Shown here: positions 1,736 through 63,800 of the stretch, one piece after another | Numbering within the stretch: position 1 is the first letter of the stretch | How the letters are laid out: every line of letters begins with the position of its first letter | Source: Deuterostichococcus epilithicus | Lineage: Eukaryota; Chlorophyta; Trebouxiophyceae; Prasiolales; Stichococcaceae | Assembly (NCBI GenBank): GCA_033439295.1 | Contig: JAVTLE010000005.1 | Coordinates: 620,001 to 684,000, forward strand | DNA: 64,000 nt | Reading direction: 5' to 3' | Notes under the pieces: model-generated | Databases searched by the model: none | Told to the model about the DNA's origin: nothing | The model's input: only the letters and a program-made list of their open reading frames with translations | Position numbers and translations under genes: made by a program

Positions 1736-4082
1736 TCATTGCTCATCGATATTACGCGGTGCATCCCCCGCAAACAGCTCCGGCATGTGCGCGTTGGTGA
1801 CCTTGTCCAGCCGGACCTTCTGCTGCCGCCGCTTCCGCTCCTGCAGCCAGGGGCGCAGCCCCTATGTCACCCGCTCTGCTTCGCTTTCGGACACGATGCT
1901 GACTGACTTGCGCATCAGCGCCCACACACGTCACCGTCGCCACAACATGCTGTGGCTGTCTGCCCTCTTGGGAGTGGCAGGAGGGGTTCAACAGGCCTGG
2001 GCCACTGCCCCTGACCGCCAAGACCCGCCAGCCGAGCCCCGCCAGACCGCGGCGGCAGCGACTGCAGTCGCGGCCCCATGTCAGCGGCGCCCAGACGTCG
2101 GAAACACTCTCACCTTGGGCGGCAGCGCGGTGCGCTTGCGTTCAGCAGAGCGCGCCGCCGGCGTGATGCCCGCGGCATTGAGCTCCCGCTCCAGCTCCAC
2201 AGGGTCCGCCGGCACCAACGCCTCGCGCCACACGGCCGCCAGCTCACCGATGTAGGACACCTGCGCGTCCAGCTTGTCGTCCCTGCAGAGCGTGAACAGG
2301 TCTGTATCAAGTTTGGGATCAAACTTGCATGAACCAGCTCTGCGGCGTAGGATTACTACGCATCCAGCTCGTCACCCCTGCGGAGCAGGCTGGGCTCTGG
2401 GGTCGGCTGTCTTTAGGGTTCCTTTGCAGCCAGACTGATGCTGGACAGCAATTCCGCATGCGCAACTCTCCTGAGTGCGCCGCGCCCGTATGCAACCGAG
2501 CACTTAGCGCCCTGTGCTCGTCGCGGTGAGGCGCCACCCTCCGCGGCAACTGCCACCAAACCACGGCATCTCACCTGGAGTAGAGGACATATTCCCGCAG
2601 GTCGTGGTTGTGAATCGCGTACAGCTGCCCACCCTGCCTGAGCCGCTCGATGTCCTCCTTCACGCCGGCATACGAGTCGTCCACGTCGCTCTGGGGAAGG
2701 CGGAAGCGCACGTGCGTCAGCGTGCGGCGTTGCCTCATCAACGGCGCCCGGCGCGTCGGCCGATGAGGCGTCGGCCAGCCTCTGGCGCTTTCAGACCGGG
2801 GTGGGGGAGTCACAGGTGCAGGGTCGCAGCAGGCAGGCATGGGGCGCTGCACGACACACATGCGAAGGCAGTTCTGTCTTGATCCTTTCCCGACCATGAC
2901 GGCAACAGCACCCCAACAGCGCCCCAGCCATGGCAGCGCCAAGGCACCATCGCTTGTGCGCGCCTGTATGAGGCCGGACTCGCCCTTGGCACGCAGCGCA
3001 GTCAGCAGCGCCTCTGCGTCCGGGATCTCCAGCAGCGTCTGCGCAGGCACGGCACATGTGCACGCGTTCACCACAGCCGCCCGCAGAGCATGGGCGGGGC
3101 GGCGACCGAGGGTGGAACCTGGTCGTATATACCTGCAGCAGCTTCTGCACAGGGGCCGCAGTCATGGACATGCTGAGCGCAGCGTGCCCTCCCGAGCATG
3201 GAAGGGGTCAGCGTGGCAACACCACAGGACTGGAGCAGCAGCCCGAAGGCAGGTCGGACGCCTGCCAGGGCACCTGGCACTCACTCTGCACCGGTGCTTG
3301 CACATGCCGCAGACATCGATGTCTGGAATAAGGGTGGCTCAGCTTCTGTGCTGAGTCTCTGTGTGTCTTTGTGCTGAGTCGCTCGATCATGGACCTGCCG
3401 GCAGGCAACGTTCAAGCGGCAACGAAAAGGAATAAGGAAACAAGCGTCCACCTTGTACTCGTACAGGCCGTCAGGCGTTGCTGAGATCTTCGGGTTGGCT
3501 TTCACCGCCTCCGCCAGCGCCGCATCCCCCTCCACATCAAAACCCAGCGCTGTCTGTATCTCCGCAGCGCTGGCGGGAACTCGGTGCTCCTTCAGCCACT
3601 CCAGCAGGTCTTTCAGCTTCTTGCCGAGCGCCGCAGGGCGCCGGCCGCCGGCGCCCGCTCGGGGCTTTGCCGCGTCTGCGGCGAGACACCATCACTCGTC
3701 ACACTCGCAACCTGCGTCTTCGCGTCTGTGAGATCTGAGATGCGCCGGGGCTCAGTGCTTGATGTCACCCATGTAGGAGTATTCCCTCGCTGTCTGTATG
3801 GCAGCTTCATTCACATGTGGCGTCACAGTGGCTGTTGGCACCACGCACCATGCATCGCCGCCGCCGTGCTCCTAGCATTCCTCTCGGCCAGCCTGCCTGC
3901 TTTAGACGCCAACAGAGAGCCAGCCAGCAGCTACCTGGCTTGGCGCGGGGCTTGGCGGCACGCTGCACCTTTTGCCGCTCAGCCGCGGATGCCTTGCGCT
4001 TCGCCTCCTCCACCGCCTTGGTCTGCAGCTTCATCTGGTTGTTGCGGAACGCCGCCAGCTTCTGCTGCAGCTGCGACGCCAT
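1736..4082 (-). CDS. GTF2E2: Transcription initiation factor TFIIE subunit beta
   Basis: General transcription factor that pairs with TFIIE alpha and helps recruit and regulate TFIIH at RNA polymerase II promoters in the nucleus. Exon 1 (4082-3935) starts MASQLQQKLAAF and is a Lys/Ala-rich helix. Exon 2 (3675-3452) holds the first winged helix, with the core NPKISATPDGLYEYK, close to the family's NPKI..DGKY.F. Later exons carry the second winged-helix region (TLLEIPDAEALLTAL; SDVDDSYAGVKEDIERL; NHDLREYVLYSRDDK) and the basic tail RKRRQQKVRLDKVTNAHMPE before the TGA at 1736-1738. The family is about 290 residues in human; this model is similar. The junction after GLIQ uses a GC donor (2962-2963). 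One intron contains a copy of the next exon's start (see repeat at 2377). The exon between the two winged helices is not fully resolved. Confidence 0.9.
2337..2398 (-). repeat. Intronic copy of a TFIIE beta exon start
   Basis: Read on the minus strand, this stretch repeats the acceptor and first ~40 bases of the true exon that starts at 2282, shifted by 95 bp. The true exon reads DDKLDAQVSYIG; the copy reads DELDA and then a stop. Both carry a CAG-type acceptor, the copy at 2377. Confidence 0.75.
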
Positions 4083-4903
4083 GGCTGCCGCTGGCTGGAC
4101 CGCCGCTGCCTCCTGGTGTGACTCCTCGGTCCTGAGCCGGGTGGCGCCGATTGCCGCTGGTCGGGCGACTACTTATTCCGGTGACCGCTGCGGCATGGGA
4201 GGCGCTTCGCTACCATGTGGCCCTGCCTCAGGCTCCGCCCTGACGCGAGCGCCGCTTCGTTGAGAGGCTGTGAACTCGAATTCGCTGTCGAACCTATGCC
4301 AGGCGCACAGGCACAGGCGCCACCTGCGCCGCACTGTCGACGTGGTGAGCCGCTGAAGCTGAAGCGGGCTACCGTTGCTATTAAGCTTCGGTTGAGTCTA
4401 TAAACCGTCGACCTCAAGTTCCTCGCACGTAAGCCTGTGAGTGCGGCACGCTGCGGGCGCTGTGGCTGATAGCGTGACCCCGATTGCTGCACTTCAGATG
4501 GCGCGCTTGCAGTCTCGGATACAGTCACAACCGTGGGTCCGAACAACAGCCTCGGAGATGCTCAGTATCCCGAGCTTGAGAAAAGGTAGATGCTCAGACG
4601 TTGAGATTATCGAATGCAACCGGAAGTGCCAACAATTTTGCGAACGAGGCGAGGCACGACGGACGATATGTTGGAAACCGAAATTCGTGCAAACTCTCGT
4701 GCAAATGCTGGTATCGAGCGCACGAGGCGTCGCTGCACTGGATTTGAGCCCTGCGCCCTCGCGTACGCCTGCTCAGTCCCCTTTTTGATCGACACAACAC
4801 TTGCTCACGGACCAATTGCATTCTGTAGTCCTGTGTTGCGAGCATAGAGTGTTGCGATCAGCTACAGCGCTTGGTAAACGAGGCTCAGTCGCGTGCAGCC
4901 GCT
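4083..4903. promoter_or_regulatory. Shared divergent upstream region of TFIIE beta and ClpR4
   Basis: About 820 bp separate the start codons of two divergently oriented genes, so both promoters and 5' UTRs should lie here. I see no clear TATA box or other motif. The region is less GC-rich near 4560-4700 than its flanks. Confidence 0.45.
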
Positions 4904-7791
4904 ATGTCGCAGGGCCTGGCGCTGCTGAACTCGCAGCAGAGGTGTTTGTCCAATTTGGCAGCGCCCTCTGCAGCAGCGCACCTTGCACATGCAACCTCGC
5001 CGACCGCACCATGCACAGCGCGGCTACTGCAGCTGCGACGACCAGCCTGGCAGCTCACAGCCGGCGCTAGCAGGCGGCATTGCAGAGCACAAAGGCAGAC
5101 AGCAGCCAGGGCTGCTTCAGGTGGGGCCAAGTTTCAAGCCTGCACACGGCCCTCATCATACAGAGATGCTTTCAATCCATCGGAGTAGCCTTGCCACAGC
5201 GGCCTCTCGCCCTTTGGGCATGCGCGGTGTGCACATGCGCACGCGCGCATTTTCTGTTTTGTCCACCACCATTCCAAGCGGACATGCACGATGCTGCTGA
5301 CTGCGGTCGTAGGCTCGACACCAAACAAGCACATTGTCCCTGAGCCCGACATACAGCGTCAGAATGCATTTGCGGCAAGGCAGTCGTCCGGCGTCCTGCC
5401 GCAACGACACATACAAGTCCAGAAGCTGCCTTGTCCAGCTCAAGCCATGTCCGGGCTACTCTCACAGGGGAGCCCTCCGCACTGTGGACGCCGCCGGGGG
5501 AGCTGCTGCTGCCCGACGCGGCGGACATGATCGCGCCGCAGATGTCGGCCAACAACGGCATCGTCGCAAGCTCTGGCGCTGGTGCCGCGGCGGAGCGCGG
5601 CAGCTTCGACGAGCACAAGGTAGGCCACAGCTGTCGCAGTTGTATGGCGCCGCCGACTGGCAGCCACTCCAGGCAGCGTCTGCCGCCGCATCCGCCCGCC
5701 GTGCGCAAGGAACCCCCCCTCGGGCCTGCGTGGTTGCTTGGTCAGACCTTGTAGAGAGCACGCATGCTGTCGATGAAGGGCACCTGTTTCACTTGGCTCC
5801 CCGCAGGCCAAGTCGCCGCCTCCAGACCTGCCATCGCTGATGCTGGATGCCCGCATCGTGTACCTGGGCATGCCGCTGGTGTCCGCCGTCACGGAGCTCA
5901 TCATCGCGGAGCTGCTGTACCTGCAGTACCGCGACCGCACCAAGCCCATGAACCTGTACATCAACAGCACCGGCACCACGCGCGCCGACGGCGAGTCGGT
6001 GAGGAGGCTTTGTCGTTTGCTTCCTCCCTTGCGTGCGACCGCACCAAGCCCGTGAACCTGTTCATCAACAGCACGGGCACCCCGCGCCCCGACGGCGAGT
6101 CGGTGCACGCGGATAGTTCGTTTCAGTGTCTGGCATGTGTGCTGTCACCCCTGTTCCGAGGACCCAGGGCTGTAGACAAGTCATGCCACCCTGAAACCCT
6201 GGCAGATGCCGGCCATCCTGGCAGGGTCTCAGTGACACACCGCGACCAGCAACCCATTGTCAGACGGGGTCGAAGGTAGACTGCTTCAAGGAGCTGGCGT
6301 TCAAATGGTGTCTCCTTCCTGCTGCAGGTGGGCTTTGAAACAGAGGGAACAGCCATCTTCGACACGATGTCGTATGTAGGCAACGAGGTGAGCCATGAAG
6401 CGCGTTTCCGGGGCACATGCTCAGTTTCCAGCAGCCACGTCTTCAGACGTACTGGGCTCCTGGTTGCGTGATTCCAGAGTCATTGCAGGCTGCATAGTCG
6501 TATGCGGCCCCACACGTCAGCGCCACTGCATCCTGTGCGTCCTCGCATCAGCGCTGCGACGTCCCAGCATCTCATGCACTTTTTGTGGGCCTGCGCAGAT
6601 CCACACGGTGGGCGTCGGCGTCGCCATCGGCCAGTCGTGCATGCTGCTGTCGGCGGGCACCAAGGGCAAGCGGTTCATGCTGCCCCATGCCACAGGTGCG
6701 CATCCTCCCTGCACATGCAGTTGCCTGCTGCTGCGCCGCCGGTCTGGGGTGAGGATGGCGATGGGGATGTTTAGGGTTTAGGGTAAGGGTCTAAACATGC
6801 GTTGCATCTCCTTGCTTGATCCTCGTCCAGGCAACGACCCGGTTGGCATCAGGGGCGTGATACCTCCGTCCGAGAAGCTGTGGATCATCTAGGGACATAA
6901 CGGCTGATGGGCATCCCATGCCGAAACCCCATGCTGAACCCTCAAACCTGCCCGCATGCGCAGCCATGCTGCACCAGCCGCGGGTGCCGCCGACGGGGCA
7001 GCGCCAGGCGGTGGAGATTGCCATCAAGTGGCGGGAGGTGCTGGCGCAGAAGACCGCCTTCCTCAAGATCCTGGAGAAGACCACTGGCCACACGCCCGAG
7101 AAGCTGGACAAGGTGTGGGCGGCGCCAGAAAGCAGTCGCGCGGTCTGCATGCGTGTTGGTCTTTATGCGGCGCTGCTTCCCGACTGTGCGACAGTGCTGC
7201 ACACCAGCTGTAGTGCGGCTGCGCTGAGCTGGCGGATGCTGGCTGGTGGCGGGAGCCTCTTAGCCAGAGAGATCGAAAGCTTGCGCCGCATGCCAGCGCT
7301 GCGGCAGCCGGGTTCATGTAGGATCGTTAACTTCTGCTGCATGTTGTGGCGCGCAGGACATGCAGCGGCCGCTGTACATGCGGCCGCTGGACGCCATCGA
7401 GTACGGCGTCATTGACCGGCTGGTGCCGCCGCAGAAGGAGCTTGAGATCATCGACCAGGTGCATATATTCTATAAATGGTCTTTTCCAAAATCCTGCCCA
7501 AGCTGCAATGCAAATCAACTCTGGCAAGCACGAGTGGTAGCAACAGCTGCACACGTCCTGATCAGGGCGCCCAATCGATCCCTCAGTGGCTGTCATGTGA
7601 ATGCCTTCGCCAACGTGCTGCCTTCTTGATGCACAGGTCCCCTGCCCAGCTTGTGAGGCTGCACTGGCATGCCTGAAAGGCCTGCCGAATCCTTGGGCTG
7701 ACTTGTGTGGGGTGCTGCCCTACAGATCAAGAGCCCGGACATGTATGATAAGGAGGCGGGGCTGGTCGCCCGGCCCGCCACATCCTTTTGA
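4904..7791 (+). CDS. CLPR4: Plastid Clp protease core subunit ClpR4
   Basis: Non-proteolytic ClpP-like ring subunit of the chloroplast Clp protease. Eight exons join in phase: 4904-5120, 5468-5619, 5807-5998, 6328-6387, 6599-6695, 6964-7112, 7357-7458, 7726-7791, giving 344 residues. Residues 1-70 are Ala/Arg/Ser-rich and acidic-poor, as in a plastid transit peptide. The core matches ClpR4 rather than other ClpR (PPPDLPSLMLDARIVYLGMP, NSTGTTRADGE, SAGTKGKRFMLPHA, EYGVIDRLV). The ClpP catalytic Ser position is Gly (VAIGQSCMLL), while the His of HQP is kept. Intron 3 contains a near-copy of the end of exon 3. Intron 5 holds TTTAGGG telomere-like words. The start is the first ATG of the transit-like exon. 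Confidence 0.93.
6035..6102 (+). repeat. Intronic copy of ClpR4 exon 3 end
   Basis: The 68 bases match 5931-5998, the end of exon 3, with about five mismatches and lie 104 bp downstream in the intron. The copy still reads CDRTKPVNLFINSTGTPRPD, in another frame, and is followed by a GT. No AG acceptor precedes it, so it could act only as an alternative donor. Using it would shift the frame, because 104 is not a multiple of three. Confidence 0.9.
6767..6787 (+). repeat. Interstitial telomere-like repeat
   Basis: Two full TTTAGGG words and a degenerate third lie in a ClpR4 intron. This is the plant and trebouxiophyte telomere word. Confidence 0.7.
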
Positions 7792-10270: not shown

Positions 10271-10950
10271 CAGAGCCGGTGTCGACGTGTACTGCATGCT
10301 CAGCAGGTACTGCGTGTCAACGACAGCGCACGCGTCGGGCTCTGCTCCATCTGCCTGGCTGCAATCGGATGTTGGCACGCAGGCGGGACGCCCGATCGAC
10401 AAACCGGGCACTAACTCGAAGTTGTCTGCATGTGAAAGCGACACCTGGCCTCAGCATTGCGGGGGTCAGCGCATGCACAAGTCGCAGTGCATCCTTAGCA
10501 ATGGCCTGCATTTGACGAACGCTGGTTGCCGTGCCTGAAAGAGCCGGTGTTGCCGTGTATTCGATGCTCTGCAGAAATTGCGTGTCGATCAGCCGTCTTG
10601 CTGGCATACTTGTGGTGCGATGCGGTCACAAAGGCCAGCACTCCCTCGCAAAATCCATGAAAGGCCACAACGGAGGCTCCTGCACAATATTCTGTAATGA
10701 TACCTCGACCCACACTCATCTGAGTTACCTGCGAAGGACCCTGTTCAAACTTCGAAAGGGTCATTGCGGCGGATGACCTGGCGGCTGGCGATATCTGTAA
10801 ATTCGCAGCAACCGCCATATTCACACTGGAACGGCATTTGGGCTCGATGACAGAAATACGCGCATGCAACGAACGCTGAGAAGAGTGGTGGATGTCCGCC
10901 TCGTGCCCATGCCTCAGCGGGCTCCGTCACCATCTGCAGCACCTGGCTTG
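10271..10950 (-). CDS. Possible exons of an unidentified minus-strand gene
   Basis: Several short stretches look coding on the minus strand. One runs from a CAG acceptor near 10436 (reading DNFELVPGLSIGRPAC) to ACAVVDTQYLLSMQYTSTPA and a gtgagc donor near 10270. Another reads QAIAKDALRLVHALTPAMLR (about 10515-10455). A third, near 10745-10940, reads VLQMVTEPAEAWARGGHPP. A second version of the first stretch, LIDTQFLQSIEYTATPAL, lies about 270 bp upstream, either as an internal repeat or as an intronic exon copy. I do not recognise a family. The relation to the 8335-9963 frame is unknown. Confidence 0.25.
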
Positions 10951-11856: not shown

Positions 11857-14800
11857 TCATCGCACAAAGTAACGGGTCGTCAGAGAGAGTGTCATCACAA
11901 GGGTGGGGAGGGGTGAGGGGGATCGCACCTCGGCCATGAAGCGCTCGTACTCGGACATGACGCGGCCGCCGTCGGGCTCGGCCTTAGGCTCCATCTTGGG
12001 CGGCTCCTCCGGTAGCGGTGGCTGCCATGCGGGCGCCTGCATGTAGTAATGCACACCAGTTGCACACAGTGCACAACACAGGACACTCAGGTCTGGTGGC
12101 GACGCCGTGACATGAAATGTTGTGTCCGAAGCCATCCAGTCGATACGAGGCCATGGCATATGCCACGCTGAATGCTTCCACACCAGGTGTGCCAACCGCC
12201 TCAGCCTCTGGCGCGCAATATGCACGGGCCATCCCGTGCAGAAGGGAAACGCAGTCACAGGAGCCCCGCGCCAGCCAATGAGCGCCCTGCAGCAGCCCGG
12301 ACCGCAGCGCACGCCCGGATATAGGGATGAAACAACAGCGCACCGCGGGCGGTGTGGGGGCCTCGGGGGGCGGCGCGGCGCCGGTGGGCGCGCCCGGGGG
12401 CGCGCCGTANGGCGCCTGCTGCTGGTACTGGCTCGCGTCGGGCTGCGGCGGCTGCGGGCCTGGCGGCGCGCCGTAGGGCGGCGGGTACGCGCCCTGGAGG
12501 CGGGACAGCATGCCCCAGCCACGGTGAGGCACTGCCGCCGGGGGTGTGGACGGATGCAGGCGAGCTTGCCCGCCACATGCACGACTCGCAGACATGTCGA
12601 GGGAGAGTGTGCTGGGACAGAGTCGTGCAAACAAGGATCAAGGGTTTGGGGTCGAACCCTAAATACCAAAGGGCTACGCAGGGGGGCGCACCATCGGCGG
12701 CGCGCCGTAGCCGTGCTGTGGGGGGTAGCCATAGGGCGGCGGCGCGCCATACGGCTGCAGCACACACAAAGCACATGCTGACACAGCAGCGGCCGAGGAG
12801 CTGTGCTGTCCAGTGTGAGGTCAAGCTGGAATTGAGTCACCCTTGCCGAGGTGAAAGCTGCGACGGAATGCTGGTGGCAATGACAACGCGGCCTGCCAGT
12901 GGCTGAGAAGGCTCACAAGCATCCGGCCCAACAGACCCAGCATTTGCAGCATACGCGCAGCCCATGCAGCTTCCAAAGACGCACGCGCTGAAAAGTGGAG
13001 TGTGCACCTGAGGCGGCGCATAGCCGTAGGGTGCGCCGTACGGCGGCGGCGCGCCATAGCCGGGGGGCGGAGCGCCATAGCCTGGCATGGGAGCACCATA
13101 GCCAGGGGGTGGACCTCCATAGCCCTACAGCCAGAGAAGGCAGGGGCTGTAACCAAACGGCAGCACGGCGCTCGACGACAGCGACGGCTTCGAGCGACTG
13201 TTTCAGACCTGTGATGCACGCTGGCTGTTTTTCCATGCTCAGCTCTGAAACCGTCCGCAACACCTTGAGCAGCTGCGACACGCTCCAATGCGACAGGGTC
13301 CCTGCAGTGCACGGGGTCATAACGCAAAGCTGGCGTCAGGGGAGCGACACGCACCGGCGGTGGGCGGGGCGCGCCGTAGGGCGCCCCCGGCGGCGGCGCG
13401 CCGGGAGGCGGCGCGCCATACTGCCCAGGCGGCGGCGGCCCGCCAGGTGGGCCGCCGGGCGGCTGGCTGCCGGGCGGGGGCCGCGGCGCGCCATAGGCAG
13501 GCCGCATCGTGGGCGGCCCGCCCGGGCCGCCGGGGCCGCCTGGTGGGCCGCCGAAGCCGCCGCCGCCGCCACCGCGCGGGTTGCCAGCGATGCGCACCGC
13601 GAGGGTCTTGTCCGCCATCTTGTACCCGTTGATGCCCCTGCGATGGGAATTCATCAGCCTCGACTTGCAAGCCCCCTTGCAACCTGTGAAGGATGTGTCA
13701 TGGCGCTGCAAGGAGCGCATCGCAGGCGCCTGGCGGCCCGAAGCAATGACCAGCGAGCTGCCAGCCGCGTCTCAGAGGCCCATGCCGGGAAGAGCATGCT
13801 GCGGGGACTGCTGGGGGCTGCTGGGGAATGGTGCGCACTTGATGGCGGCCGAGGCGGCCTCCACGGTGGCCATGGTGATGAAGCCGAAGCCGCGGCAGGG
13901 GCCCATGTTGCTGCCGATGGCGCGTGCGTCCAGCACCTGAGGACCCACGAAATGCTCAGCAGATGTTGCGCCGGCTGTAGAGTTGGCGGGTCCGTCATTG
14001 AGTTAATTGGAGGCCGGCAGCGCGACTGCAGAATAAGGGTGTGCACACAGGGTGTGCAGCTTGTGTCCTTGAAGGTCAAGCCGCGGGCAGCACGAGAGCT
14101 GTGTCGCTCAGGCACCCTTGGCCGCCGCATCGTGATCTGATCCTGATGATAGCTCACACAGATGTGACGACACTCGTGAGTTTGAAATCTGGGTGGATGA
14201 CTGAACGCACCTCGCCAAAGGGCGTGAACACGGAGCGCAGCAGCTCGTTGTTCATGGTGGACGGCAGGTTGGAGACGTAAAGCTTGGCCTCGTCTGGCAC
14301 GTCGGGCCGCGGGGCGCTCTTCGGCGGCGGCCCTGCAGCGGATGGCGGAATGCGGAAGTCATGTGAAACATTCGCTCGAACACATCGACATCTTCACAAA
14401 GGGTCTGCAAATGTGAAGCCTTGGCCTCATCCCGCGGCAGGGGCTTGTGGCGGCGGCCCTGCGCCTGACGAGCCGTGTGGCTTTGACATTGAACATGCAA
14501 GGATGCCTGCAAAACCTTAGACCTTGAATGAGGCTCATGAGGTGCACAAAGATCTGTCCTGCTGTGGGTCTTAGGCTGCCCGGGGGGAAAACTCTGTCAG
14601 GTCATCGTTGGGGAACCAACATACAGCAGACCTGCTGACAGCCTACCATGCCCTTGCCCTTACGTCGACACAACGCCGGAGGGACCTGCCCAGCAGCTCA
14701 CCTTGCGAGCGCAGGCGGGCGACAATCGCGCGGCCGTCGATCATCTTGCCGTGCATGCCGTCCGCCGCCGCCCTGGCCTGCTCCTCGCTCGCCATGTGCA

Positions 14801-17800
14801 CGAAGCCGTAGCCGCGGCTCTGCAGAGGCAGACATTCGCACATCCGTCGGCTGTTCGAAGTCCATCTAGGGAAGCTGCTCCAAGAGGCCAACGTGCCAAG
14901 ACCGCATAAGGGGACGGGCCACGACGAAGTGCCTCTGATCGCAGCAGCACAGCAGCATTGATGAAGCCACGCACACGACGTCGCTATGCTTCTGCAAGCA
15001 CGATGGCATGCAGGACCTTGCCATGCGCACTGAGTCCAGACCGAATAGGGTCCTCAACTTCACTGACGCGAGTTTCGGTTTTGTGCAACCGCACCTGCTG
15101 CGTGTTCATGTCCTTGAGCACGATGGCGTGCAGGACCTCGCCGTAGGCACTGAACTCGGACCTCACGCGGTCGTCGGTGACGCTCTCCGGCAGGCTGCCC
15201 ACGTACAGCTTGCAGCTGTCCGGCAGGTCGTCGCCGGGGCGCCCGCGCGGCCGCGCAAAGCCTGCACAGACGGGAGGAGTGCGAGCTTTTCAGAGCTCCG
15301 TACTTCGGAAGCATTAAAGGGATCGCATTGAACATAGTACAACATAACCCTGGTCGGCCCCAGATGAGGTTGCAGGCGCGCCGCAGTAGAAGGCAACTCC
15401 ACAGCTCCACATTGACTCGCAAGGCAGCACCGCAATGCACACAGACTGCAGCGCTGTGCAGCGCTCGCGCCGGACTGCAGGCCCAGCAGCGGGCCGCCGC
15501 ACCGAGGCCGTCGTGGCTGCGGCCGGAGTCGCCGCCGGGCGCCCNCGGCGGCGCACTGCCGCCGGGAGCGCCGCCGCCCAGCGATGCCAGGAACGACTTG
15601 TACTCGTCCTCCTGCCCAGCGGCGCCCGGCTCGGCGCCCTGCAACGCGGAAGACGGTATGGGATCGTGTTGTACCAGGGATCGTAGCACAACAAGTGTGA
15701 TGGTGGTTGGGAAGGACTGACACTTGCACTCTGGCGTCATGCCGCTGGGGTTTACGCCTGCAGCGCGGGAACTGCAAGCGGGGTGTTGGGCATGTGTGAG
15801 GAAGGTCTGGCGACCTGGACAGCCATTCTCGACACTTTGCGACCACAGGCTGCCAAGATTGTGTGGGCGCCTGGTGCAGCGCTGCCACCGAGGGCAGCCA
15901 CACGCCGGGAGCCGCCCTCAACACGTGGCAGTCGCCCTGGCACAAGGACGTTGCAGGTGGCGGCACCAACGAGCAGTCGCCCCCTTGAGCAGCAGCGATG
16001 CAGGTGCGCAGCACCGCTTCCAATCGAGATATATGGCACATGATTGTCGCCGGCCTGGACGACGCTGACGACCATCCGCGTGCTGCGGAGACAAGCCCTC
16101 ACCGAGCGGCGGGCGATGTCGCGGGCGTACAGGCTGTCCACCTGCGCCTGCACGTTCTCCGGCAGCTTGTACACCTCCTCCTTCTGGTTGGGGCACTCGA
16201 ACTGGCGGTGCCCCGTGCCCCCGCACAGGAAGCACGGCTGCTCCTCGAACTCCTGTTGTTTGGGGGGAGACAGGCTCAGGGTTTAGGGTTCAGGGTTCAG
16301 GGCAGGTCAGTGTGGTGCCGCTGGGCTCCACGGCCGAGATGCACGAGCCGCCGTGCGTGCCGGGTTGGAAACAGTATCAGGCGCATCTCCTGCAGAAGCG
16401 CCTTGTGCATTGAACGAGCATCTCCACGCGCCAGGGCAATCGCAGTGCGACTGCCGCTGAGCACATCCGGGGCCGATTCCTCACCTTGAGCGTGCCGTTG
16501 AGGGCGGCCAGCTCGCGCAGCTGCATGCGCTTGTGCTCGTTGCGGGCCTCGTCCTCCGGCTGCATCAAGTCCGTCAGCATGTCCGCCGCCGCATCCACCT
16601 GCGCATTGTGTGGCCCAACAAGTTGAGAATCGTCATCTTCCCCCATGCTGGCCCAACAGTCCTGGCAGCCCATATCTGCTGCTCCCTCAGTGCTACAACC
16701 GCTGCGCGATTGCAGCGAGGAGAGAAAATACACCCAACCACCAGCAGCATGCTCGCTGCTCCTGGCAAAGGTGCACGTCATCTTTGCACCGACTCCTTGT
16801 CAGCAACAGCTGAATGTGAGTGCATCCGTGCAGCATCAACCTCCAGGGAGCAAGGAATGCATCAGTGCAGCATCGTGTCTCCAGGGAGCAGGGCGGCCTC
16901 ACGTCCTCCTGCTTGTCGCCGGTGACGAGCACGTGCAGCTCCTCGTCTTCGCCATAGTCGTTGCGCGGGTCCCGCGCCGCGCCCTCCTTGACGGAGCCGC
17001 GCCCCCTGATCGCGATCTTCGTGTTGGTCTCCCTGCACATGACGTGCGCCAGGCGGTCTGATGCGATGCTTCAGCGACCGGGATTGCGGAGCGCGACCTG
17101 CTGCAACAGACTGCAGCTCCTGGAAAGGCATGCAACAAACGCTAAGCGCGGCGGGACCGCACTGGACCAGCTGCTTGGTAGGACTGGTCTTGTGCAGGCG
17201 ACTGGCGAGGGAGGACCATGGGCTTGGCGCCTGGCGTGCAGGCAGGGCGCACCGCTGCATGCGCTTCTGGGTGTTGCCGCGCGGGCCGATGATGAGGCCG
17301 ATGAAGTTGGTGCCCGGGTACTCCTTCTGCGGGATCCAGATCTTCTTCCACTTCTTGGCCGGCCTGCGACACAGGGAGAGGAGGTGGCTCACCAGGTCCT
17401 TCACGATGTGCAGCATTGTAAGAGGAGACGCCATGACGCACCAAGCGACCAGAAGACTCGACGGTGCGATTTTCGTGGAATTATGCTTGTTCGAGATGCA
17501 TTCTGTGGGCTCGGAAGAAGTCTCGGCCTCATTCAGAAGCCCTCCTCCTTGCGCCTTCACTCTGTCTCGACTCCACGAGATGCCAAGCGGGCACGAGCAT
17601 GTCCCTAACAGCAACCCCTCACCGGTAGTCGGAGGGGGGCCGGTAGGTGGGGTCCCGCTTGATCATCTCCTCCACCAGGTCCTGCCGCCGCGCCTGCATC
17701 TTCTCCTTCTCCCGCATCTCCCGCGTGTTCTGCCGGATGCCGTTCCTGATGCGCAGCGAGCGAGTCGCGTCAGTTCGGCGCTGGGATGCGCGTTGTGCTT

Positions 17801-38107: not shown

Positions 38108-38195
38108 CAGGTACAGAGGTGGCTTGCAAGCGATGCGCGATGCTGACTCGTCCTGCCAGAAACCGCATCAGTGATACACAAGACGGCAGCCCGGT

Positions 38196-41599: not shown

Positions 41600-44500
41600 A
41601 TGGAACATGCCAATGCGGCGGCAGGTATGCCTGCCGTGCCGGGTCGCGGTGGAGCTGGTGGCGATAGCGGAGGTCATCCGCAGGCCTCGCAGGCCGCATG
41701 GCGCAAACACCACACTGTGTTCACCAACGAGAAAGCCGGCATGGCGGGAGTCAACCGGGACCATGTTCAGAAGGTTGTGTACGAGATGAGCAAGGTGAGC
41801 AAGAGCTGACCGTGCTGCTGTCTTCCATGAATATGTTCAAGGATTCTCGCCCGGATTCACAGCACCTGGCGGCATTTTTTTCGGCCTGCACAGTGCGATG
41901 CGCCGCGCAGAGATCACTGAAAAGGAGGAGTGCGCTTGCGCATCCCGTGTCGACTGGTAACAGCACCAATCTCATCCGCATGTCCTCGTCCAGGACTCGG
42001 CGCACTTCAAGAATGAGCAGCGGAAGCAGGCGCAGACAGACGAGCGCATTGCACGCCTCAAGCAGCGCGCCGCCAGCCTCACACAAGGGGAGCTGGCCGC
42101 CCACCAGCGGTGCGACATCCGGCCTCCGTGTCAGACTGTCGTTGTTGCCAGCCGCAGCTTGCCACTTGCTGCACGCAGCTCGCCTCCTGCCCGTGTGTGC
42201 ATGCACCGCGCTGAAGTGTGCATCAACCTCCTGCCCGCACCTCGCGTGCGGTCGCACCTTTGTTGTCTGGACACCCGCAGCTAAAGCATTATCTGTTTGG
42301 CCACTCGAAGGAACCCCATTGAATGCATGGCAAGCATCAAGTGTCCGCTTCCACAGACAGGCACACGGCTGTTGACCCTGACTCTCGCATGTGCCTCGGT
42401 GGCGCAGGGCCATGGACGCGCTGATAGCGGAGCTTGCGGCCACCAGGGACCTGAAGGCCACCTGGCTGGTCGTAGATCAAGACGCATTCTTCGCTTCGTG
42501 TGCAGAGCTGCGCGACCCCACCCTGGTGTGCAACCCTCGCCACTCTGACGCATGTCCAGGGGCCTCAGTGCGGGTGTCTGCTGACCAAGACTGTACGACT
42601 GCCAGCCTCATCGTCAGTTGCACTACTTCCCACTCGTGCATTGTTCAGAGGCATCAGTGAACACGGCTGCAGAAGGACAAGCCAATGGCGGTGGGCGGCA
42701 TCGGCATGATCTCCACCGCAAACTATGTGGCGCGGCGGTTTGGCGTGCGGTCCGCCATGCCCGGCTTCATTGGCCGCCGCCTGTGCCCCGAGCTTGTGTT
42801 CGTGCCCTCGGGTGTGCAATATTCTATACGAAAGAAAAGTTCAGTCAATTTCTCTTCGAAAAGCAATTGTTGTTCCTCGAAGAGGCACCCGGATTTCTCA
42901 CCAAATGCTGCGAGCCTGGGCTCTCCGGCATCACACCGTGCGCCCGGCGCTGTGGCGCTCCCGTTCAGGAGCACCTGCAGCTGCACCGCGATGCTGAGCA
43001 GGAGCCACGACGGCCCGCACGCCATGCGCAGGCGGCTGTGGACTTCGCACGACACATCAAATGTGCCTTGTGCTCTGCTGGTGCAGACTTCCAGCACTAC
43101 GTGGAGGTCAGCAAGCAGACGCGCGCCGTGTTTGCGGACTTCGACCCCGACTTTCATGCCGGCTCCCTGGACGAAGCCTTTCTGGACGTCACCGCCTACT
43201 GTGCGCAGCATGGCGTGTCGGGTGGGTTTCGGGGGAAAGGCCCCGGCAGCAGTCTGATTCGGCGCTCATTCCCTCGGTACCGTCATGCTCTGTGCTGCAG
43301 TGCGATGAGGGTCACCTGACTTGTCAACCACCTGGTGTTCGGCATCCTGCCGTGTGCCCCCTCCGTTTGGCTGTTGTGGACGAGGCTGCTGGCGAATCAC
43401 TTCACACACGACACACCGGCGGCGCAGGCGCGGAGGTGGCCGAGACCATCAGGCGGCGGGTTCGAGAGGAGACGGGGGTCACGTGCTCCGTGGGCATCGC
43501 GCCAAACCGCATGCTCGCAAAGGTGTGACGTGCCTCCTGCTGCATGCTGCTGTGTGTGCTCTCAGAAGAGCTTGCAAATTCAGTGCGAGTGCAAACAGTC
43601 ATGCCTGCTGCAGCGTGTGGCGCTGATACTGATCAGACATAGAAGGGGTCTGGAAGCCAGGCTCTGAACGTGACATCGTACGTAATCCTTCTTCACACAT
43701 GCTTCACGTTCAATGCTTGCCACCGCAGGTGTGTGCCGACCGCAACAAGCCGGACGGACAGTATGAGATCCCTGCAACAGTGGACGGGGTCAGCCGCTTT
43801 ATTGCGGAGCTGCCCATTCGCAAGGTCCCGGGCATCGGCAAGGTTGTGGTTTCGATTGGATTTGAGAATTGCAGTTGCATTCACAGAGTCTCATGGATTA
43901 TACAATGTTTCTCAGGGCATCACAATGTTTTGTTCCCAACAACCCTCCCCGCGTGTCACATATTACTTCAGGTTTTCAGGGGTTTTGGTTTGACAGTGCT
44001 TATGTTCTGTTGTGTATGCCGCAGGTGACAGAGCACATCCTGAAGTCCTTTGGGGTGGAAACCTGCAGCGGCCTGATCGAGCAGCGGGCGCTGCTGTCCG
44101 CCCTCTTCTCAAAGGTGCTACCGCTGGCCAGGAGTTCCTACTTCCTGCTTGCTGCAATGACAACCTGGCTCTGCTGCTCCTGCTTCGCCGCTCCAGGGAA
44201 CCTTCCCACTGAGCATCTGCCGGATGCGTCACCTCCAGAACTCTCGGATGGTTCTCTCGACAGCACTTTCGGATGGCTCTCTCGATGGTCCTTCGCAAAC
44301 CAGCCCTCTCAGCCGCCCCGCCCTGATATCTGAACATGCACGACAGGTGGCGGTTGACTACTTCATGCGCGTGGGGCTGGGCCTGGGACAGACGGCGCAC
44401 GGGGAGGCGACGCCCGAGGGCGAGGTCGGCCGCAAGGGCATCTCCTGCGAGCGCACCTTCCGCCCCCTGTCCTCCCCCGCCGACCTGGAGGCCAAGGTGT

Positions 44501-47348
44501 GCGCCGCGCATTGGTGGCGCATCGGCTCGCCGCCGCACCTTCACTCAACTCCTGCAAGCACGCCATCCGCCCCTGTCCGTGCCCGCCGACCTGCAGGTCA
44601 AGGGGCGCTCATGAGCACGCAAGGGCGGCTGCGCCTTGACAGCTATGTGACTCGGCTGCACTCCGCAGACTGCACTCCGTGGACATGGGGGCATGGGAAA
44701 GGGGGTCGCAACCTAGTCCAGGATCGGCACCCTAGACAAGCTTAAAGCCAACCCAAGTTGATGAGAGGCAGCAGCCTGACGATGTCAACAAAGTCCATAG
44801 ACTGCTCGGCAGTGAAGGAGCTTGCTCTGTACGACCGCGGATGCGCATTCATGCTCAGATGCGAATTTGTCCGTTATTTGCAGCGAGGTAAACCCCTCGA
44901 ACCCTGCCAAACCCTGGCCATCGTTGGAATGATTGCAGTGCGCTGAGATTGCGGAGCACCTGGCGGGGGATATGGCACGGGAGCAGCTGCAGGGCCGCAC
45001 TGTGACGCTCAAGCTCAAGTCCGCCACCACCTTTGAGGCACGTCACCCGTGCTGCCGGCTCCGCTGACATTGGCTTGATGGCGCCCTCGCTCCTTCCGAC
45101 TGGGCCATGGCATGCAATGTCGTCCTGCACAGCATGTCAACAGTCCGTCATCATACCACAGCCTCCGAGGCCACGGCCGATTCGCACGTGCCGCTCAGTG
45201 TAGCCAGCGCAGCTCGCAGCCGAGGCCTCCGTCGGTTGATTCAGCGAGGCTGCGCGCATGTGCAGGTGAACACGCGGGCAGTGACGCTGCCCAACTACGT
45301 GAGCTCGGCGGATGATCTGCGCAAGGCGGCACTGCGCCTGCTGCGCCCTGAGCTGCCGCTCACCCTGCGCCTCATGGGCATCAGGCGAGCAGGCTTCCAA
45401 ATTTCCAACTTCCAACTAAACTCGCTCGTTGGTTGTCTCTGCATGGGAGAGCCCACCGCTGCAGGGTGGCGCAACTGCGCAGGCAGCTCTCGGACCTTGA
45501 GTTATTCCTGGAGGCACAGGCTGTCGGTGTTCGCATGCAGCCCGCTGACCCTTTGCTCTGACATTGCTTCGAGTGGCTTCATTGCTGAGTGACAATCCGT
45601 GTGACTGAAGGCAACTTGGTGCCCTACAGGGTATCAGCTTTCAAGGAGCGGCCGGCGCCGCCCCCCGGGCAGAAAACCCTGGCTGGTTTCCTGCAAGTCA
45701 GCGATGCAGCGCAGCCTGTAGCAGGTGGCAGCGGCAGTGGCGTTGAGCACTCGGAGGCAAGAGAGCCTGATGGGGCGGCGGCGGCGGCCCCGCAGCCTGC
45801 AGACGGCAGACAGCCAGAGGGCGGTGGCGTGTGCAACAGTCACGGTGCTGGACCGGCAGCAGGGGGCCGGGATAATCGCCTTGGCGCGGACCGCGGCATT
45901 GACGGTTTTGGTCCAGAGAATGGCGGTTCCGTCTTTGGGCCCTCGGAGGGCAGCCGCAGCAGTGCTGGCGGGGGCAACGGCGGCGCTGGCGCGCCAGCGG
46001 AGCTGACGCTACAGGGCTGGGCGACCGACGCCGAGTCGGATCCCGAGGTGGACCAAGAACAGGAAGCGGCAGGCGTTGAACTCAGCCTGCGTGACTGGCA
46101 GCTGCCGGATGGCGCAGCGGAGCCGCACGGCAGGTGTGGACTTGGCATCACTCTGCGCCGTGCATTCTTTGATGTGCAAGAGAGCTGCCAGGCACGGACG
46201 AGCGCACCTTCCTTGCTGTTCCGGGAATCCTGCCTGCCAGTAGTGCCCGCAGTTCGTGCAGGTCTGCAATCCCCATCATTATTCGTTGTCTGTCACAGCG
46301 CGATGACCCTGCCTGTGTGCCGCCTCCCGCGCTGCAGCCAGCCGGCGAACGGGCGGCAGAAGGCAGCATCCTGGCGCTGCCGCACGTGCACCTACATCAA
46401 CCCGCGCCACCTGCTGCGTTGCGAGCTGTGTGAGGTGCCACGGCGCGGCGCACTCAGCTGCGACTCTGCCACCTACGGCGGCGGCGGGCTTGGTGCCAAC
46501 GGCGGGCTCGGCGGCGGCTCAGGGGGCAGCGGCCCCGGCAGCGATGCTGGTGGTAGTGGCGGCAGCGGCAGCAGATCGTCTCCTCCGCAGCAGCATGCGC
46601 CAGCGGCGCCGGCGCAGGAGCGGCAGCACATCTCGCGGTTCTTCGAGGAGGCGCAGCCAGTGGCGGCGGCACCGGCAGCGCTACCGCAGCTGCCACATGC
46701 AGGTTCACCCGAGCCTGAGCCTGCAGTAGGAGCCGTCGGCGCGGCAGCAGAGGCCGATGGCCGACAGGGTGACAGTGGGCTCAGCGGCGGCGGCAGCGCC
46801 CATCCAAACTCTTGGCGCTGCGAGTACGCTTTGCATGCTGCCCAAGAGCTCGCACGAGGCTTTTGCACATGCGCATGCTCGACCTGCACACCCACCTTCC
46901 CAGCAAGCATCTCACCATGGGCAGGCTGCATTGTGCCATGGCAGTCGATGCCTGCAAATCCCGCTTGCTCGGCTCGCATCTGCACCGCTGCCTGACGCTG
47001 AATGCAGGGGACCCATGTCGCAGGCGCTGTGGCAGGGCGGTCCCCGAGGCACGGCGCGCCGAGCACAGCGACTGGCACTTTGCAGACGACCTGCAGCGGG
47101 ACAATGGTGGCGCTGCTGCGGCGTCGGACGGTGGCGCCTCACAGCAGTCGGGCAAGCGGCGCAAGCTCCTGGCGTCGCCGGCGGGCTCCGGCGGCAGTTC
47201 AGGGCCGGGCGTCGGGCCAGCCGGCGGAAAAGGCACCGGCGGCGGCAAGGCAGGCCGTAAGGGCATGCAGCATCATCGGCAGCAGCAGCAGCATCAGCCG
47301 GGCACAATCGATGCGCTGCTGAGCCGACACAGACAGAAGTCCCAGTGA
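41600..47348 (+). CDS. POLK: DNA polymerase kappa (Y family, DinB type)
   Basis: Translesion DNA polymerase. Exons join in phase: 41600-41794 ([17 protein letters not shown]), 41994-42109, 42408-42525 ([17 protein letters not shown]), 42673-42811 ([19 protein letters not shown]), 43087-43221 ([10 protein letters not shown]), 43428-43522 ([11 protein letters not shown]), 43729-43842 (IRKVPGIGK), 44025-44114, 44347-44496 (ERTFRPLSS), 44948-45037, 45266-45384 (LRLMGIR), 45630 onward. The catalytic Asp pair and DE are present. The tail has a PIP box (QKTLAGFL), an NZF finger ([20 protein letters not shown], about 46370), a second PIP-like RQHISRFF, a UBZ3-like finger ([20 protein letters not shown], split by an intron at about 46819) and a terminal [10 protein letters not shown] before TGA. 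Two introns use GC donors (45038, 45385). Confidence 0.94.
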
Positions 47349-57295: not shown

Positions 57296-57950
57296 GATGG
57301 ACTCGCAGTGCGGTTGTGAGTGTGTGCCACCGTGAAGTCTCTCGCTCTTCGAGGGAATTCATCATGAGTCATTGAGATCGCCGTCAGCAGATCTTCGGAA
57401 AGTGGTAGGAAGCTGCAATCTACTGCTGCATTGTTGCGCAAACTAGCTGGCAAACGGACGTGTCTGTGTATGCGACACCGAGAAGAGGTTGTAAGATGCG
57501 GGGCGCTGGGTTCACGAGGGAACGTTCTGAAGCAGAAGCTGGGGGGAAATAAATGCTGAACTCAGACCCGCCCTGTGCCGCCTGCTGCTGTGTGCTGTCC
57601 GCTTGCAAGGTTGCTGCTCGACGTCCAAAGCAAGCAAGCAAAGCGTTTCGCCCATTGCGCACCATTGCGTTTGTACACCTTGAATATCCTCCTCGACGCT
57701 TCGCCGAAACAGTCCGATTGGTGGGTGATCTAACAGACTAAACGCTGTGGTTGAACGCCAGTGTGAGCAAGGCAATCCTGAAGTGTCTCAAGAGGCACGT
57801 CCTGAATAAGACTTGAAAGATTCAAGACATGCATCAGCCCAGCAGGGCACAGCAGGGACTCCCCGGGAATCAAGGTTAATCCACCTGTCGGAGCAGCAGG
57901 CAGCAAGTGTGCGCTGCCTGCTCCAAGGGGCTCGTCTCAAGCCTGCAAAG
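57296..57950. promoter_or_regulatory. Divergent upstream region of trehalase and the TOPRIM gene
   Basis: About 650 bp separate the two start codons. It probably holds both promoters. No clear motif was found. Confidence 0.4.
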
Positions 57951-60846: not shown

Positions 60847-63800
60847 TCACATGCATTCGCACTCTGCAAGACACCAGCAAACAGCATGCGGCGCACCATT
60901 GACGCCGTCTCGAATCCATCGCTTCACAGTTTGAATGAAGCCGATGTACGTTGGATTCTGTGCGGCACCGCCTGTGAACTGCTGCGGGTTGTACCCGGAC
61001 TGGCCCTGCAGGCAGGTGAGTCTGGCAGAACATAAGCTTTTACGAATTGCCTGCTGTGCAACTTTCCAACGCTGCAGTGGACCTTCGGACTGAGTGGCAC
61101 AGAAGCAAGTGCGATTGGTGGGCAGGGCACCACCAGGCACATTGGCAGGGGATTGAAAATTGCGGCAGGCCCGCCGCAAGAGGCTTGGCACCATGCAGGA
61201 TTAGTCAGCATGCCAAGAAGGGGAAGCAGCCACTTGCCTGGATCCACCAGACGAACCCTAACGATGCGATGACTGCCGCGGTCGAGACGATCATGGCGAG
61301 GAAGCACATGAAGGAAAGGATGTACTTCCGTCCGGCGATTGCATAGGTGAACAGCAGGATCGGCGGGATGGAGTTGTAGAGGCACCAGATGATGGAGATG
61401 AGCAGCGGGCTCACAATCACGGCGCCAGTGAAGACCTGCATCCGAGACCAATGTTGGTTTGGTTAGCACGGTGAGGTCAAAGCTGCAAGGCTGGAGTTGA
61501 AACAATATCGCGCACATCAACTACTGCGCTGCAGCATCATGCAAGTGGGCAGGGCAAGCCAGGTCAAACAAACGGCCCGTCTTCTCGTGCGCATGACACC
61601 CAGAAGCTCGAGGACAGGTCAGAGGCGGCACCTGGATGAGCGGTCAGGCCAAACCAGGTCAAACGCGCGGATCGTGTTCGTGTGAGCATAACACCTAGAA
61701 GCATGAGGACAGGTCAGAGGCGGCACCTGGATGAGCCCCACGGCGATGGTGATCATGTTGATGGTGAGCGTCAGGCCATGGATCCACATGTCCCGGAAAC
61801 CACTGTTTCCCACCTTGCTCCCACCCTGCAGCACAGAATTCTCCGGCTCGCTATGCAGTCCTGTTGATCCGGTGTGCAGCACAGCAGATGGCGGCTCGAG
61901 GCTGGCTGTGACATCCTGTGCCTCCGCCCCGCCGGGGCCGGGGTACGGCTGGGTGAAGCGATGGGCATTGTTTTGAAGCAGTGACCCCCCTGGCCTGTGT
62001 GGACACGCCTCTGGCGAACGCACGAGTACGGACAGCTGCGGGGGGAGACCCCCCTGAAGGTGTCGAGGTCCTCGCGACCCTGGTGAAATAACGGAATCAG
62101 AACTGGGATGAGGGTGACGCACGCAAAAACACGCAAAAAGACGAGGCGGAGGCGCACCTTGGCAGTGGCCTTGAAACTGATGCTGCCGCAGCAGCATGCT
62201 GCTGTGAAGGACCGCCACATGGCCTTCGCATACGTCCACCAGAACAGCTGGTTGGCCAGGCCCGCAAACCACAGCGCCGGCAGGTGCCTGCACACGGGAT
62301 TGGAGATGCGCATCAGAGCACTGTGCCACAGATGTCTGAGCTGGTAGTGCATACGCATCACACTGTAGGCGCACTGCGAAATTTCTTCCCCCCAGTGCCC
62401 AGCAGGGCACGCCTCTCATCCTTGCAGCCCTGTCAGCTTGGACACGTCCGCCTTGCGCACGGCTCCCCGGGCGTCAGGCTCCTAAAATTCTCCATTTCGA
62501 AACAAGGAGCTGTGTGGGTCTTGCTGCAGGTGCACAGGGTTGCGCGAGACCATTGTGCAGACAGTGTCTCACATGGGGTTTCTGAAGTAGTAGAGCACGC
62601 AGCAGTTGGCAACGATGTAGATGGTGGAGCCCAACGCCATCCAGAAGTTGACGATCATTGGGAAGACGCCCACCCAGATGGTGATGATGGGCACCTGCGC
62701 ATGAGGACAGTGCAGTTTCGCATGAGAGAGAAATGCCAACACTGCGAGTGAACTGGGCTGGAATGCCTCCAGCATCGCATATACGCAGATTCGCAGTCGA
62801 CAGGGGGCATCCAGACCCAAGCCATAGTTGAAAGGCTGCTGATGTCCACGAATGGCAGCAATCGTCATGCTTTTGACCGCAAGCATTTGTGTTCTCCCGG
62901 TGTTCACAAGTGTCAGTTCTAGGACGTCAAGCGCACCGCCATGAAGATGGGCGTGGTGACGGCATTGATGACATAGGACCAGACGCCCGAGACGTACAGC
63001 ATGCGCGACAGCCAGTCCAGCTTGGCACGGAACAGCGGGCAGTACTTGCGGTTCATGATGATCTGGAAGTGGCCCTGCAGCGATGCAGTCAAGCGACGTG
63101 TGAGTACACCAGCTCGGAGGGATGTCTTGGCCAGCGGACGTCAGTGGGAGCCATGGCAGCCGCGCCGAGGCTGTCTCCAGGCAAAAACTCCTCATGTCGG
63201 GCGACTAAATGCTGTGTGGACTGGCTGCGAGCTCGGCATCGCATCGCATATTCAGACGGTTCAGGACGACTGACACACCTTGGTCCAGCGGGAGCGCTGC
63301 TGGAAGCAGTTACGCACGCCGTCCGGCGCCTGCGGCGGAGTGAATGTTTTTCAGCACGTGAGTTCCAGCACAAACTCACAGCACAGTAATGCCACATACA
63401 AGACCGGCACAGCACGTTCCCCGAGCAGGCAGGCTGGGAGGCTGGCGGCAGCTCAGCGAGTCAGCGGCCGCGCCCGTTGCGCATCTGCCGGCAGGGTCGG
63501 CTGTTTCACTTCCGCCCACCTCGCCGACGGCGAGATACTGGTTGAGGTAGCGGCAGTGCCATCCGTTGCGCTTCATCTCCATGCCCAGCGCAAAGTCTTC
63601 CGTCAGTGTCCAGGTGGGCGTCCAGCCCGCCTCCTGGTACGCATTGGCGCGCACCATGAAGTTGGTGCCAGTGCAGGAGATGAAGTCCAGCGCGTCATAG
63701 CCTGCAGGAGGCAGAGGCAGGGTCTGAACGCTGAATGTGGGTTGAGTGGGTTGGGCGTTTTCCGCTCGAGGCCCGGTGAACATGTGGGTGGGAAGGGTCA

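What the first reader, a model, noticed from the sequence alone, without database searches (positions are those of the whole stretch)
2282..61736. Recurrent tandem copies of exon edges, including splice sites, inside introns
Seven splice junctions in six recognised genes carry a second, diverged copy of the exon edge within the intron, shifted by 59-126 bp: TFIIE beta (95), ClpR4 (104), SF1 RRM1 (120), SF1 RRM2 (126), ABCG (105, plus another 119 further), PRORP (59), GT2 (95). Acceptor and donor sides are both hit. In every case the site that keeps the conserved protein is the one joined to the exon body, and the other copy is decayed. Short tandem duplication is a known route to intron change, but such density in one 64-kb window is striking. 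It may reflect a mutational habit of this genome, a source of decoy or alternative splice sites, or slow intron lengthening. I know of no named system that matches, though I cannot search.
Basis: partly seen in the sequence, partly recalled or inferred. Interest (0 to 1): 0.85.

Follow-up and report, generated by a model that had tools for sequence, protein, structure and literature searches.

The report
Fossil duplications preserved at exon edges
This green alga's genome once picked up many short head-to-tail DNA duplications of about 90 to 150 letters, and their worn remains can still be read where they overlap the edge of a gene's coding segment, because the coding copy is kept nearly unchanged.

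Summary
Six of seven reported copies exceed the controls; SF1 RRM2 is borderline. A 304-kb sample (window plus 24 x 10 kb) holds 86 local direct-repeat pairs at offsets 20-700, against 4 at control offsets; 41 lie at 90-150 bp. With a self-trained gene finder, 28 of the 41 pair an exon with non-coding sequence and only 2 pair non-coding with non-coding; random re-placement gives 15.5 and 16.0. Introns holding a copy are about 100 bp longer. Intronic copies decay neutrally. The Rogers intron-gain signature was not found.

Simulation shows that exon targeting is not needed: random tandem duplications about 0.25-0.35 neutral substitutions per site old give a similar class mix, identity, length and score, because intron-intron pairs of that age are unreadable; a constant-rate process is rejected. 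This depends on the assumed indel rate. Best reading: a past wave of size-limited tandem duplications, like patch-repair duplications in rice (PMC7971508) and a potato duplication across an intron-exon boundary (PMC4974935). Decoy function is unsupported. No related alga or RNA data could be tested.

The parts
2239..2386 (-). TFIIE beta acceptor edge (2239-2291, splice at 2283) and its decayed intronic copy (2334-2386), offset 95
   Evidence: score 27, identity 0.75; Pfam TFIIE_beta
3027..3207 (-). TFIIE beta, second duplication, offset 106: acceptors called at 3039 and 3145; gene finder calls a 12-nt exon 3133-3144 and a 94-bp intron 3039-3132
   Evidence: score 23, identity 0.70; model only, no RNA
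5931..6123 (+). ClpR4-like donor edge (donor at 5999) and intronic copy 6035-6123, offset 104
   Evidence: score 63, identity 0.88; Pfam CLP_protease
14306..14462 (-). SF1 RRM2 edge copy, offset about 126-128; borderline
   Evidence: score 15 against null 99th percentile 12, maximum 16 of 600
14997..15175 (-). SF1 RRM1 donor-side copy (intronic 14997-15055, exonic 15117-15175), offset 120
   Evidence: score 29, identity 0.75; Pfam SF1-HH, KH, RRM_1
28512..28819 (+). ABCG acceptor edge, three tandem copies, offsets about 115 and 105; the last is joined to the exon (acceptor at 28752)
   Evidence: scores 68 and 41; Pfam ABC_tran
37614..37742 (-). PRORP edge copy, offset 59
   Evidence: TRF 2.0 copies, 80% matches; score 33; Pfam PPR_long
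44439..44608 (+).
   Evidence: score 36, identity 0.81; Pfam IMS, IMS_C, IMS_HHH
61544..61736 (-). GT2 donor edge (donor at 61727) and intronic copy, offset 95; mostly intronic sequence duplicated
   Evidence: TRF 2.0 copies; score 64, identity 0.83; Pfam Glyco_trans_2_3
10272..10586 (-). pair at offset 268, one copy labelled exon; no middle copy detectable
   Evidence: score 29, identity 0.81; middle-copy scores 9 and 6 against shuffled maximum 10

Best explanation
These are remains of head-to-tail DNA duplications, mostly 90-150 bp long, that landed at random over the genome. Because exons (median 120 bp) and introns (median 217 bp) are short, many units crossed an exon edge. The copy joined to the exon body stayed the exon; the other became intron, lengthened it by about the unit, and decayed neutrally. 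Exon-edge duplications stay readable because only one copy decays; intron-intron duplications of the same age have faded below detection. Most date to a past wave, about 0.25-0.35 neutral substitutions per site ago. The most likely biochemical source is patch repair of staggered nicks (fill-in of both ends of a staggered break, then end joining). Shown here: the copies, their size class, position, neutral decay and score profile. Inferred: random placement, the wave and its age (by simulation), and the repair mechanism (by likeness).
For: Size class: 41 of 86 pairs at 90-150 bp; 680 control offsets gave 4 pairs in all. Simulated detection rises smoothly with unit size (one parameter set), so the drop above 150 bp is not a detection effect; the low edge near 90 bp is only moderately supported. 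Edge excess: exon edges against own intron at 80-140 bp reach score 16 in 19 of 1270 comparisons, swapped controls 0; intron-intron 3 of 1669, control 3.4. Position: 27 of the 28 exon/non-coding pairs have the second copy in a predicted intron, all 27 next to the copied exon, 18 acceptor and 9 donor side; these introns are longer. Neutral decay: mismatch 0.19, 0.21, 0.26 at codon positions 1, 2, 3. Joint fit: random placement at age 0.25-0.35 with 0.2-0.35 indels per substitution gives identity 0.78-0.80, length 44-53, score 21-24, non-coding share 0.05-0.14 and weak-edge share 0.02-0.08; observed 0.79, 50.5, 22, 0.06 (2 of 34) and 0.12 (4 of 34). Scores of edge events alone reject a constant rate, KS P 5.6e-8 to 6.5e-5. 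Literature: in rice the tandem share of insertions falls from 70% to 5% by 200 bp, starting to decline above 125 bp, and is ascribed to repair of adjacent nicks (PMC7971508, section 7 read).
Against: The fit needs about 0.2 or more indels per substitution at age 0.25-0.35; with 0.1, random placement there is rejected on the count of non-coding pairs (P 0.0013) and on scores (P 0.012), and only older ages fit. The observed weak-edge share (4 of 34) is a little above the fitted one. Pairs with offsets of 20-90 bp show no edge preference (2 of 18 exon/non-coding, 3.2 expected), which fits only because old short units are hard to detect. An assembly that collapses near-identical tandem copies could also hide young events; however a 51-bp unit at 0.94 identity (L009) and a 64-bp unit at 0.98 (L024) are resolved. 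Pairs are clumped: L018 and L012 hold 10 of the 28, and 10 of 25 sources hold none, though the pattern stays without those two (18 of 26). Acceptor to donor is 18:9.
Confidence: 0.7

Rival explanations
1. A duplication process aimed at exon edges (for example tied to transcription, splicing or nucleosomes on exons) copies the last or first 30-95 nt of exons about 115 bp into the intron.
For: 28 of 41 pairs at 90-150 bp are exon/non-coding where random re-placement gives 15.5; 2 are non-coding/non-coding where 16.0 are expected. No intron-intron excess at 80-140 bp even at weak scores.
Against: Ageing alone gives a similar mix. Among the six non-EE pairs at 90-150 bp with score above 40, two are exon/non-coding, three weak-edge and one non-coding, which random placement allows (my binomial estimate, P about 0.06).
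Confidence: 0.16
2. The intronic copies are kept as decoy, alternative or backup splice sites.
For: Some copies keep a good acceptor (for example those in TFIIE beta, L004 and L016). In L018 a near-intact extra copy of the methyltransferase motif I exon edge is called as an exon.
Against: 15 of 28 splice dinucleotides kept, near neutral expectation; mismatches on all codon positions; 22 changes of offset (gaps) within the 28 aligned pairs.
Confidence: 0.06
3. Intron gain by tandem duplication: the introns themselves were born from duplicated exon pieces (Rogers AGGT model), or from boundary-crossing duplications as in potato RdRp.
For: Seven of 41 pairs at 90-150 bp are labelled exon in both copies; in four of them (L012, L014, L016, L018 4813) a donor is called inside the unit, and window 3027/3133 looks alike. 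In L018 4813 all 4 mismatches between exonic bases are at codon position 3.
Against: Rogers signature over 260 introns: 6, 2, 0 at scores 10, 12, 14 against 4.4, 0.6, 0.0 expected. Of the seven, L014 is out of phase, L012, L010 and L016 show no clear third-position pattern, and L011 is a 102-bp coding repeat.
Confidence: 0.1
4. Coding repeats (TPR, PPR, OPR, WD40, ankyrin; 99-126 bp units, recalled) or low-complexity sequence mimic tandem duplication.
For: L011 6413-6838 is an in-frame 102-bp coding repeat; unmasked scans fill up with low-complexity hits (170 near, 18 control).
Against: Masked scans keep the peak; 35 offsets at 90-150 fall 15, 14, 6 in classes 0, 1, 2 modulo 3; one copy is non-coding in 28 of 41.
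Confidence: 0.03
5. A mobile element or introner-like family supplies the copies.
For: None found.
Against: 34 non-EE duplicated regions searched against the 304 kb: 5 had a match elsewhere, all 20-35 bp with E 1e-4 to 5e-4.
Confidence: 0.02

Closest known systems
Tandem duplications ascribed to patch repair of adjacent nicks in rice (PMC7971508, section 7 and abstract passage read; Vaughn and Bennetzen 2014 seen only as a reference)
   Same: Head-to-tail copies of local sequence, no mobile element, common in a plant-lineage genome; tandem share declines above 125 bp and is 5% by 200 bp; here few above 150 bp.
   Different: Rice events are recent and polarised with an outgroup; these are old, in a green alga, read mainly at exon edges, and appear to have a lower size limit near 90 bp (moderate support).
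Boundary-crossing tandem duplication in potato RdRp (PMC4974935, abstract and results section read)
   Same: A tandem duplication that crosses an intron-exon boundary and copies the 3' splice site and exon head.
   Different: There RNA-seq shows a new intron with both exon copies used; here most extra copies look like plain intron, and use is untested.
Tandem genomic duplication model of intron gain (Rogers; Gao and Lynch 2009; Hellsten 2011; seen as passages in PMC3443670)
   Same: Tandem duplication next to splice sites.
   Different: The donor-acceptor likeness expected from a duplicated AGGT in an exon was tested and not found.
CST/Pol alpha-primase small tandem duplications at staggered breaks in mammalian cells (PMC8355091, passages read)
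   Same: A concrete way to make short tandem duplications, with size set within the overhang.
   Different: Shown with induced breaks in mammalian cells; nothing is known here about the enzymes.

Membership tests
Patch-repair (adjacent-nick) short tandem duplications | Head-to-tail direct copies of local sequence | tested here: met
   41 of 86 local pairs at 90-150 bp; GT2, ABCG and PRORP align over about the whole unit; in most others only part of the unit is still alignable
Patch-repair (adjacent-nick) short tandem duplications | Upper size limit around 125-200 bp | tested here: met
   Exon/non-coding pairs: 28 at 90-150, 1 at 150-195, 9 at 195-330, although detection is better at larger size; 8 of 15 pairs at 195-285 have a detectable middle copy, that is, are triplications
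Patch-repair (adjacent-nick) short tandem duplications | Spectrum reaching well below 90 bp | tested here: inconclusive
   8 pairs at 40-90 against 41 at 90-150; old short units are hard to detect
Patch-repair (adjacent-nick) short tandem duplications | Insertion polarised against an ancestral state | not testable with these tools
   no relatives of the genome are held
Rogers-type tandem duplication intron gain | Donor region and acceptor region of the same intron are copies of each other | tested here: not met
   260 of 681 introns tested (the others, or their exons, too short or masked): 6/2/0 at scores 10/12/14 against 4.4/0.6/0.0
Boundary-crossing tandem duplication that creates an intron (potato type) | Both exon copies used in mRNA with a new intron between | tested here: inconclusive
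   Gene finder calls such structures at L016, L018, L012, L014 and window 3027/3133; codon pattern supports only L018 4813; no RNA data
Introners or other mobile elements | Same sequence at many loci | tested here: not met
   5 of 34 regions had only 20-35 bp matches elsewhere in 304 kb

The most novel reading that the evidence does not exclude
In one past interval this alga's genome went through a wave of size-limited (mode about 105-120 bp) tandem duplication, by my model 190-375 events per 304 kb, that added roughly 7-14% to the sequence and built much of its present intron length, and may have made some introns; exon edges act as a natural fossil record that lets such waves be dated in any compact genome. 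A bolder form not excluded: the process was aimed at exon edges.
Probability: 0.35. Interest if true: 0.7.

Novelty: new member of a known kind. Interest (0 to 1): 0.5.

Why it matters
If the old-wave reading holds, exon edges preserve tandem duplications that have vanished from the rest of the genome, so the size spectrum and timing of an ancient repair signature can be read from a single genome without a relative. It gives a testable account of how introns lengthen in compact genomes in steps of about 110 bp, and a supply of near-duplicate splice sites from which alternative splicing or new introns could arise. It also warns that an apparent preference for exon edges can come from preservation rather than targeting.

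Tried and rejected
BLAST self-comparison first suggested no units under 90 bp; I think part of that was BLAST dropping near-diagonal hits (it missed the 59-bp PRORP unit that TRF finds), so I wrote an offset scan instead. A first mask (TRF period up to 40) could hide short units and was replaced. Coding repeats were kept apart (L011). The random re-placement test suggested strong exon targeting; simulation with ageing showed that this test alone is misleading (one search was a first version, superseded). Rogers-type intron gain and mobile elements were tested and not found. Gao and Lynch 2009 was not held. The organism was not identified; 'green alga' rests on gene content, splice motifs and the CCCTAAA telomere repeats, judged from recall. 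Other algae could not be compared.
Full report
What is there. Six score 27-68; the seventh (SF1 RRM2) scores 15, where 600 random places gave a 99th percentile of 12 and a maximum of 16. Three dinucleotide shuffles of the window produced at most score 16 in the BLAST self-comparison that gave 91 to the real sequence. An eighth clear case is in a Y-family polymerase gene at 44439-44608, and a weaker one in TFIIE beta at 3027-3207.

Is it special to the window? I took 24 stretches of 10 kb from the same genome: 17 at position 200 kb of contigs C1-C20 (three of those contigs are too short; C21 was not asked for) and 7 elsewhere; with the window, 304 kb. A scan of offsets 20-700 with low-complexity masking found 86 pairs with score 17 or more; an equal number of offsets, every fourth from 1500 to 4220, gave 4. 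Of the 86, 41 lie at 90-150 bp. Without the window the figures are 34 of 72, so the sample repeats the finding independently.

Where are they? A gene finder trained on the sample itself converged on AG/GTGCG donors, GCAG/G acceptors, third-position G+C of 83% and 681 introns of median 217 bp; it has not been checked against RNA. Exon pieces number 733, median 120 bp. In the 90-150 class, 28 of 41 pairs have one exonic and one non-coding copy, 7 are exonic in both, 4 touch an edge weakly and 2 are non-coding in both. Random re-placement of the same pairs gives 15.5 exon/non-coding and 16.0 non-coding/non-coding. Pairs at 20-90 bp show no such preference (2 of 18 against 3.2 expected), nor clearly those at 150-330 (10 of 18 against 8.0). 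For 27 of the 28 the non-coding copy lies in a predicted intron, and in all 27 that intron adjoins the copied exon; 18 are on the acceptor side and 9 on the donor side. Those introns are longer: median 334 against 214, or 241 when only introns of at least 140 bp are compared, P 1e-4. A direct test of 650 exon edges against their own introns shows the excess mainly at 80-140 bp: 19 of 1270 band comparisons reach score 16 against none in swapped controls, and 8 of 2928 in the six other bands; intron-intron comparisons at 80-140 bp show no excess (3 of 1669 against 3.4). The intron-intron null is probably inflated, because swapped windows can come from the same intron. Exon sequence 50-112 nt from the edge shows little: 8 of 730 reach score 12 at 80-140 bp against 4.4 expected.

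What happens to the copies? Over 1379 aligned exonic positions in the 28 exon/non-coding pairs, mismatches are 0.19, 0.21 and 0.26 at codon positions 1, 2 and 3, with 22 changes of offset (gaps). That is a neutral intronic copy facing a constrained exon; if the exon changes only at third positions, exon change is about 0.12 of the intron rate (inference). Among 28 edges of exon/non-coding and weak-edge pairs, the splice dinucleotide is kept at the matching place in 15, some places being extrapolated up to 14 nt beyond the alignment. There is no sign of selection for decoy sites.

Targeted or preserved? The class mix looks like targeting, but ageing alone can do this. I placed simulated duplications of 116 +/- 16 bp at random, let exonic positions change at 0.12 of the neutral rate, added indels, and ran the same detection. 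At constant rate over 0-0.5 substitutions per site, non-coding pairs should make up about half of the non-EE detections; 2 of 34 were seen (P about 1e-7). At age 0.25-0.35 with 0.2 indels per substitution the expected shares of exon/non-coding, weak-edge and non-coding are 0.78, 0.08 and 0.14, identity 0.78, length 53, score 24; observed are 28, 4 and 2 of 34, identity 0.79, length 50.5, score 22. Using edge events alone, so that placement does not matter, the observed scores reject a constant rate (KS P 9.5e-7 to 6.5e-5 for ages 0-0.6; 5.6e-8 to 2.3e-5 for 0-0.4). Old ages fit, by indel rate: with 0.1 only 0.3-0.45 (P 0.57; 0.2-0.4 and 0.25-0.35 give 0.003 and 0.012); with 0.2 all three old ranges (0.19 to 0.51); with 0.35 the ranges 0.2-0.4 and 0.25-0.35 (0.95, 0.39) but not 0.3-0.45 (0.031). 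With 0.1 indels, age 0.25-0.35 is also rejected on the class mix (P 0.0013). The number of events implied, 28 divided by a detection rate of 0.075-0.146, is 190-375 per 304 kb; at about 115 bp each this is 7-14% of the sequence. These figures depend on the model.

Size. Simulated detection of exon/non-coding pairs rises steadily with unit size (one parameter set, age 0.2-0.35: 0.068 at 60, 0.095 at 75, 0.155 at 105, 0.217 at 135, 0.283 at 180 bp). Observed counts in this class are 2 under 90 bp, 28 at 90-150, 1 at 150-195 and 9 at 195-330, so the fall above 150 bp is not a detection effect, while the low edge rests on few events. At 195-285 bp a middle copy is detectable in 8 of 15 pairs (midpoint score 15 or more), so these are triplications; in 7 it is not. 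In L018 a cytosine methyltransferase gene holds about five tandem copies of the acceptor edge of its motif-I exon (read; Pfam DNA_methylase).

Mechanism and what is known. A rice study (PMC7971508, section 7 read; [quoted passage not shown] In mammalian cells small tandem duplications arise by fill-in of staggered breaks (PMC8355091, passages). A potato gene gained an intron by a tandem duplication across an intron-exon boundary, and had a second, 83-bp duplication within an intron (PMC4974935, results section). These fit the anatomy here. The enzymes and the cause of the wave in this alga are inferred. The Rogers signature was tested over 260 of the 681 introns and not found; no element is shared between loci.

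Verdict. Its most surprising part, the attachment to exon edges, is best explained as preservation, though aiming at edges is not excluded. What remains notable is the size class and the age profile, which point to a past wave of short tandem duplication.

Noticed in passing
L018:1900-2545 and L018:4501-5009: A C5-cytosine methyltransferase-like gene has about five and four diverged tandem copies of exon edges (motif-I exon MRALDLYCGCGGLS and LAAFVREWRAKER); between the copy at 4823-4861 and the one at 4956 all 4 exonic mismatches are at codon position 3.
   Followed up: partly
window 3027-3207: TFIIE beta: a 106-bp duplication may have made a 12-nt exon plus a 94-bp intron, like the potato RdRp case; gene model only.
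   Followed up: no
L011:6413-6838: In-frame 102-bp coding repeat, 324 aligned bases at 81% identity, 34 residues per unit.
   Followed up: no
window (10 letters) and 10 of 24 loci: Scattered N letters in an otherwise complete assembly; those seen by eye in the window are single and in G+C-rich stretches.
   Followed up: no
window 27966-28008 and about 32197-32239: Two inverted repeats with arms of about 21 and 16 bases inside ABCG introns, read by eye; no tool run.
   Followed up: no
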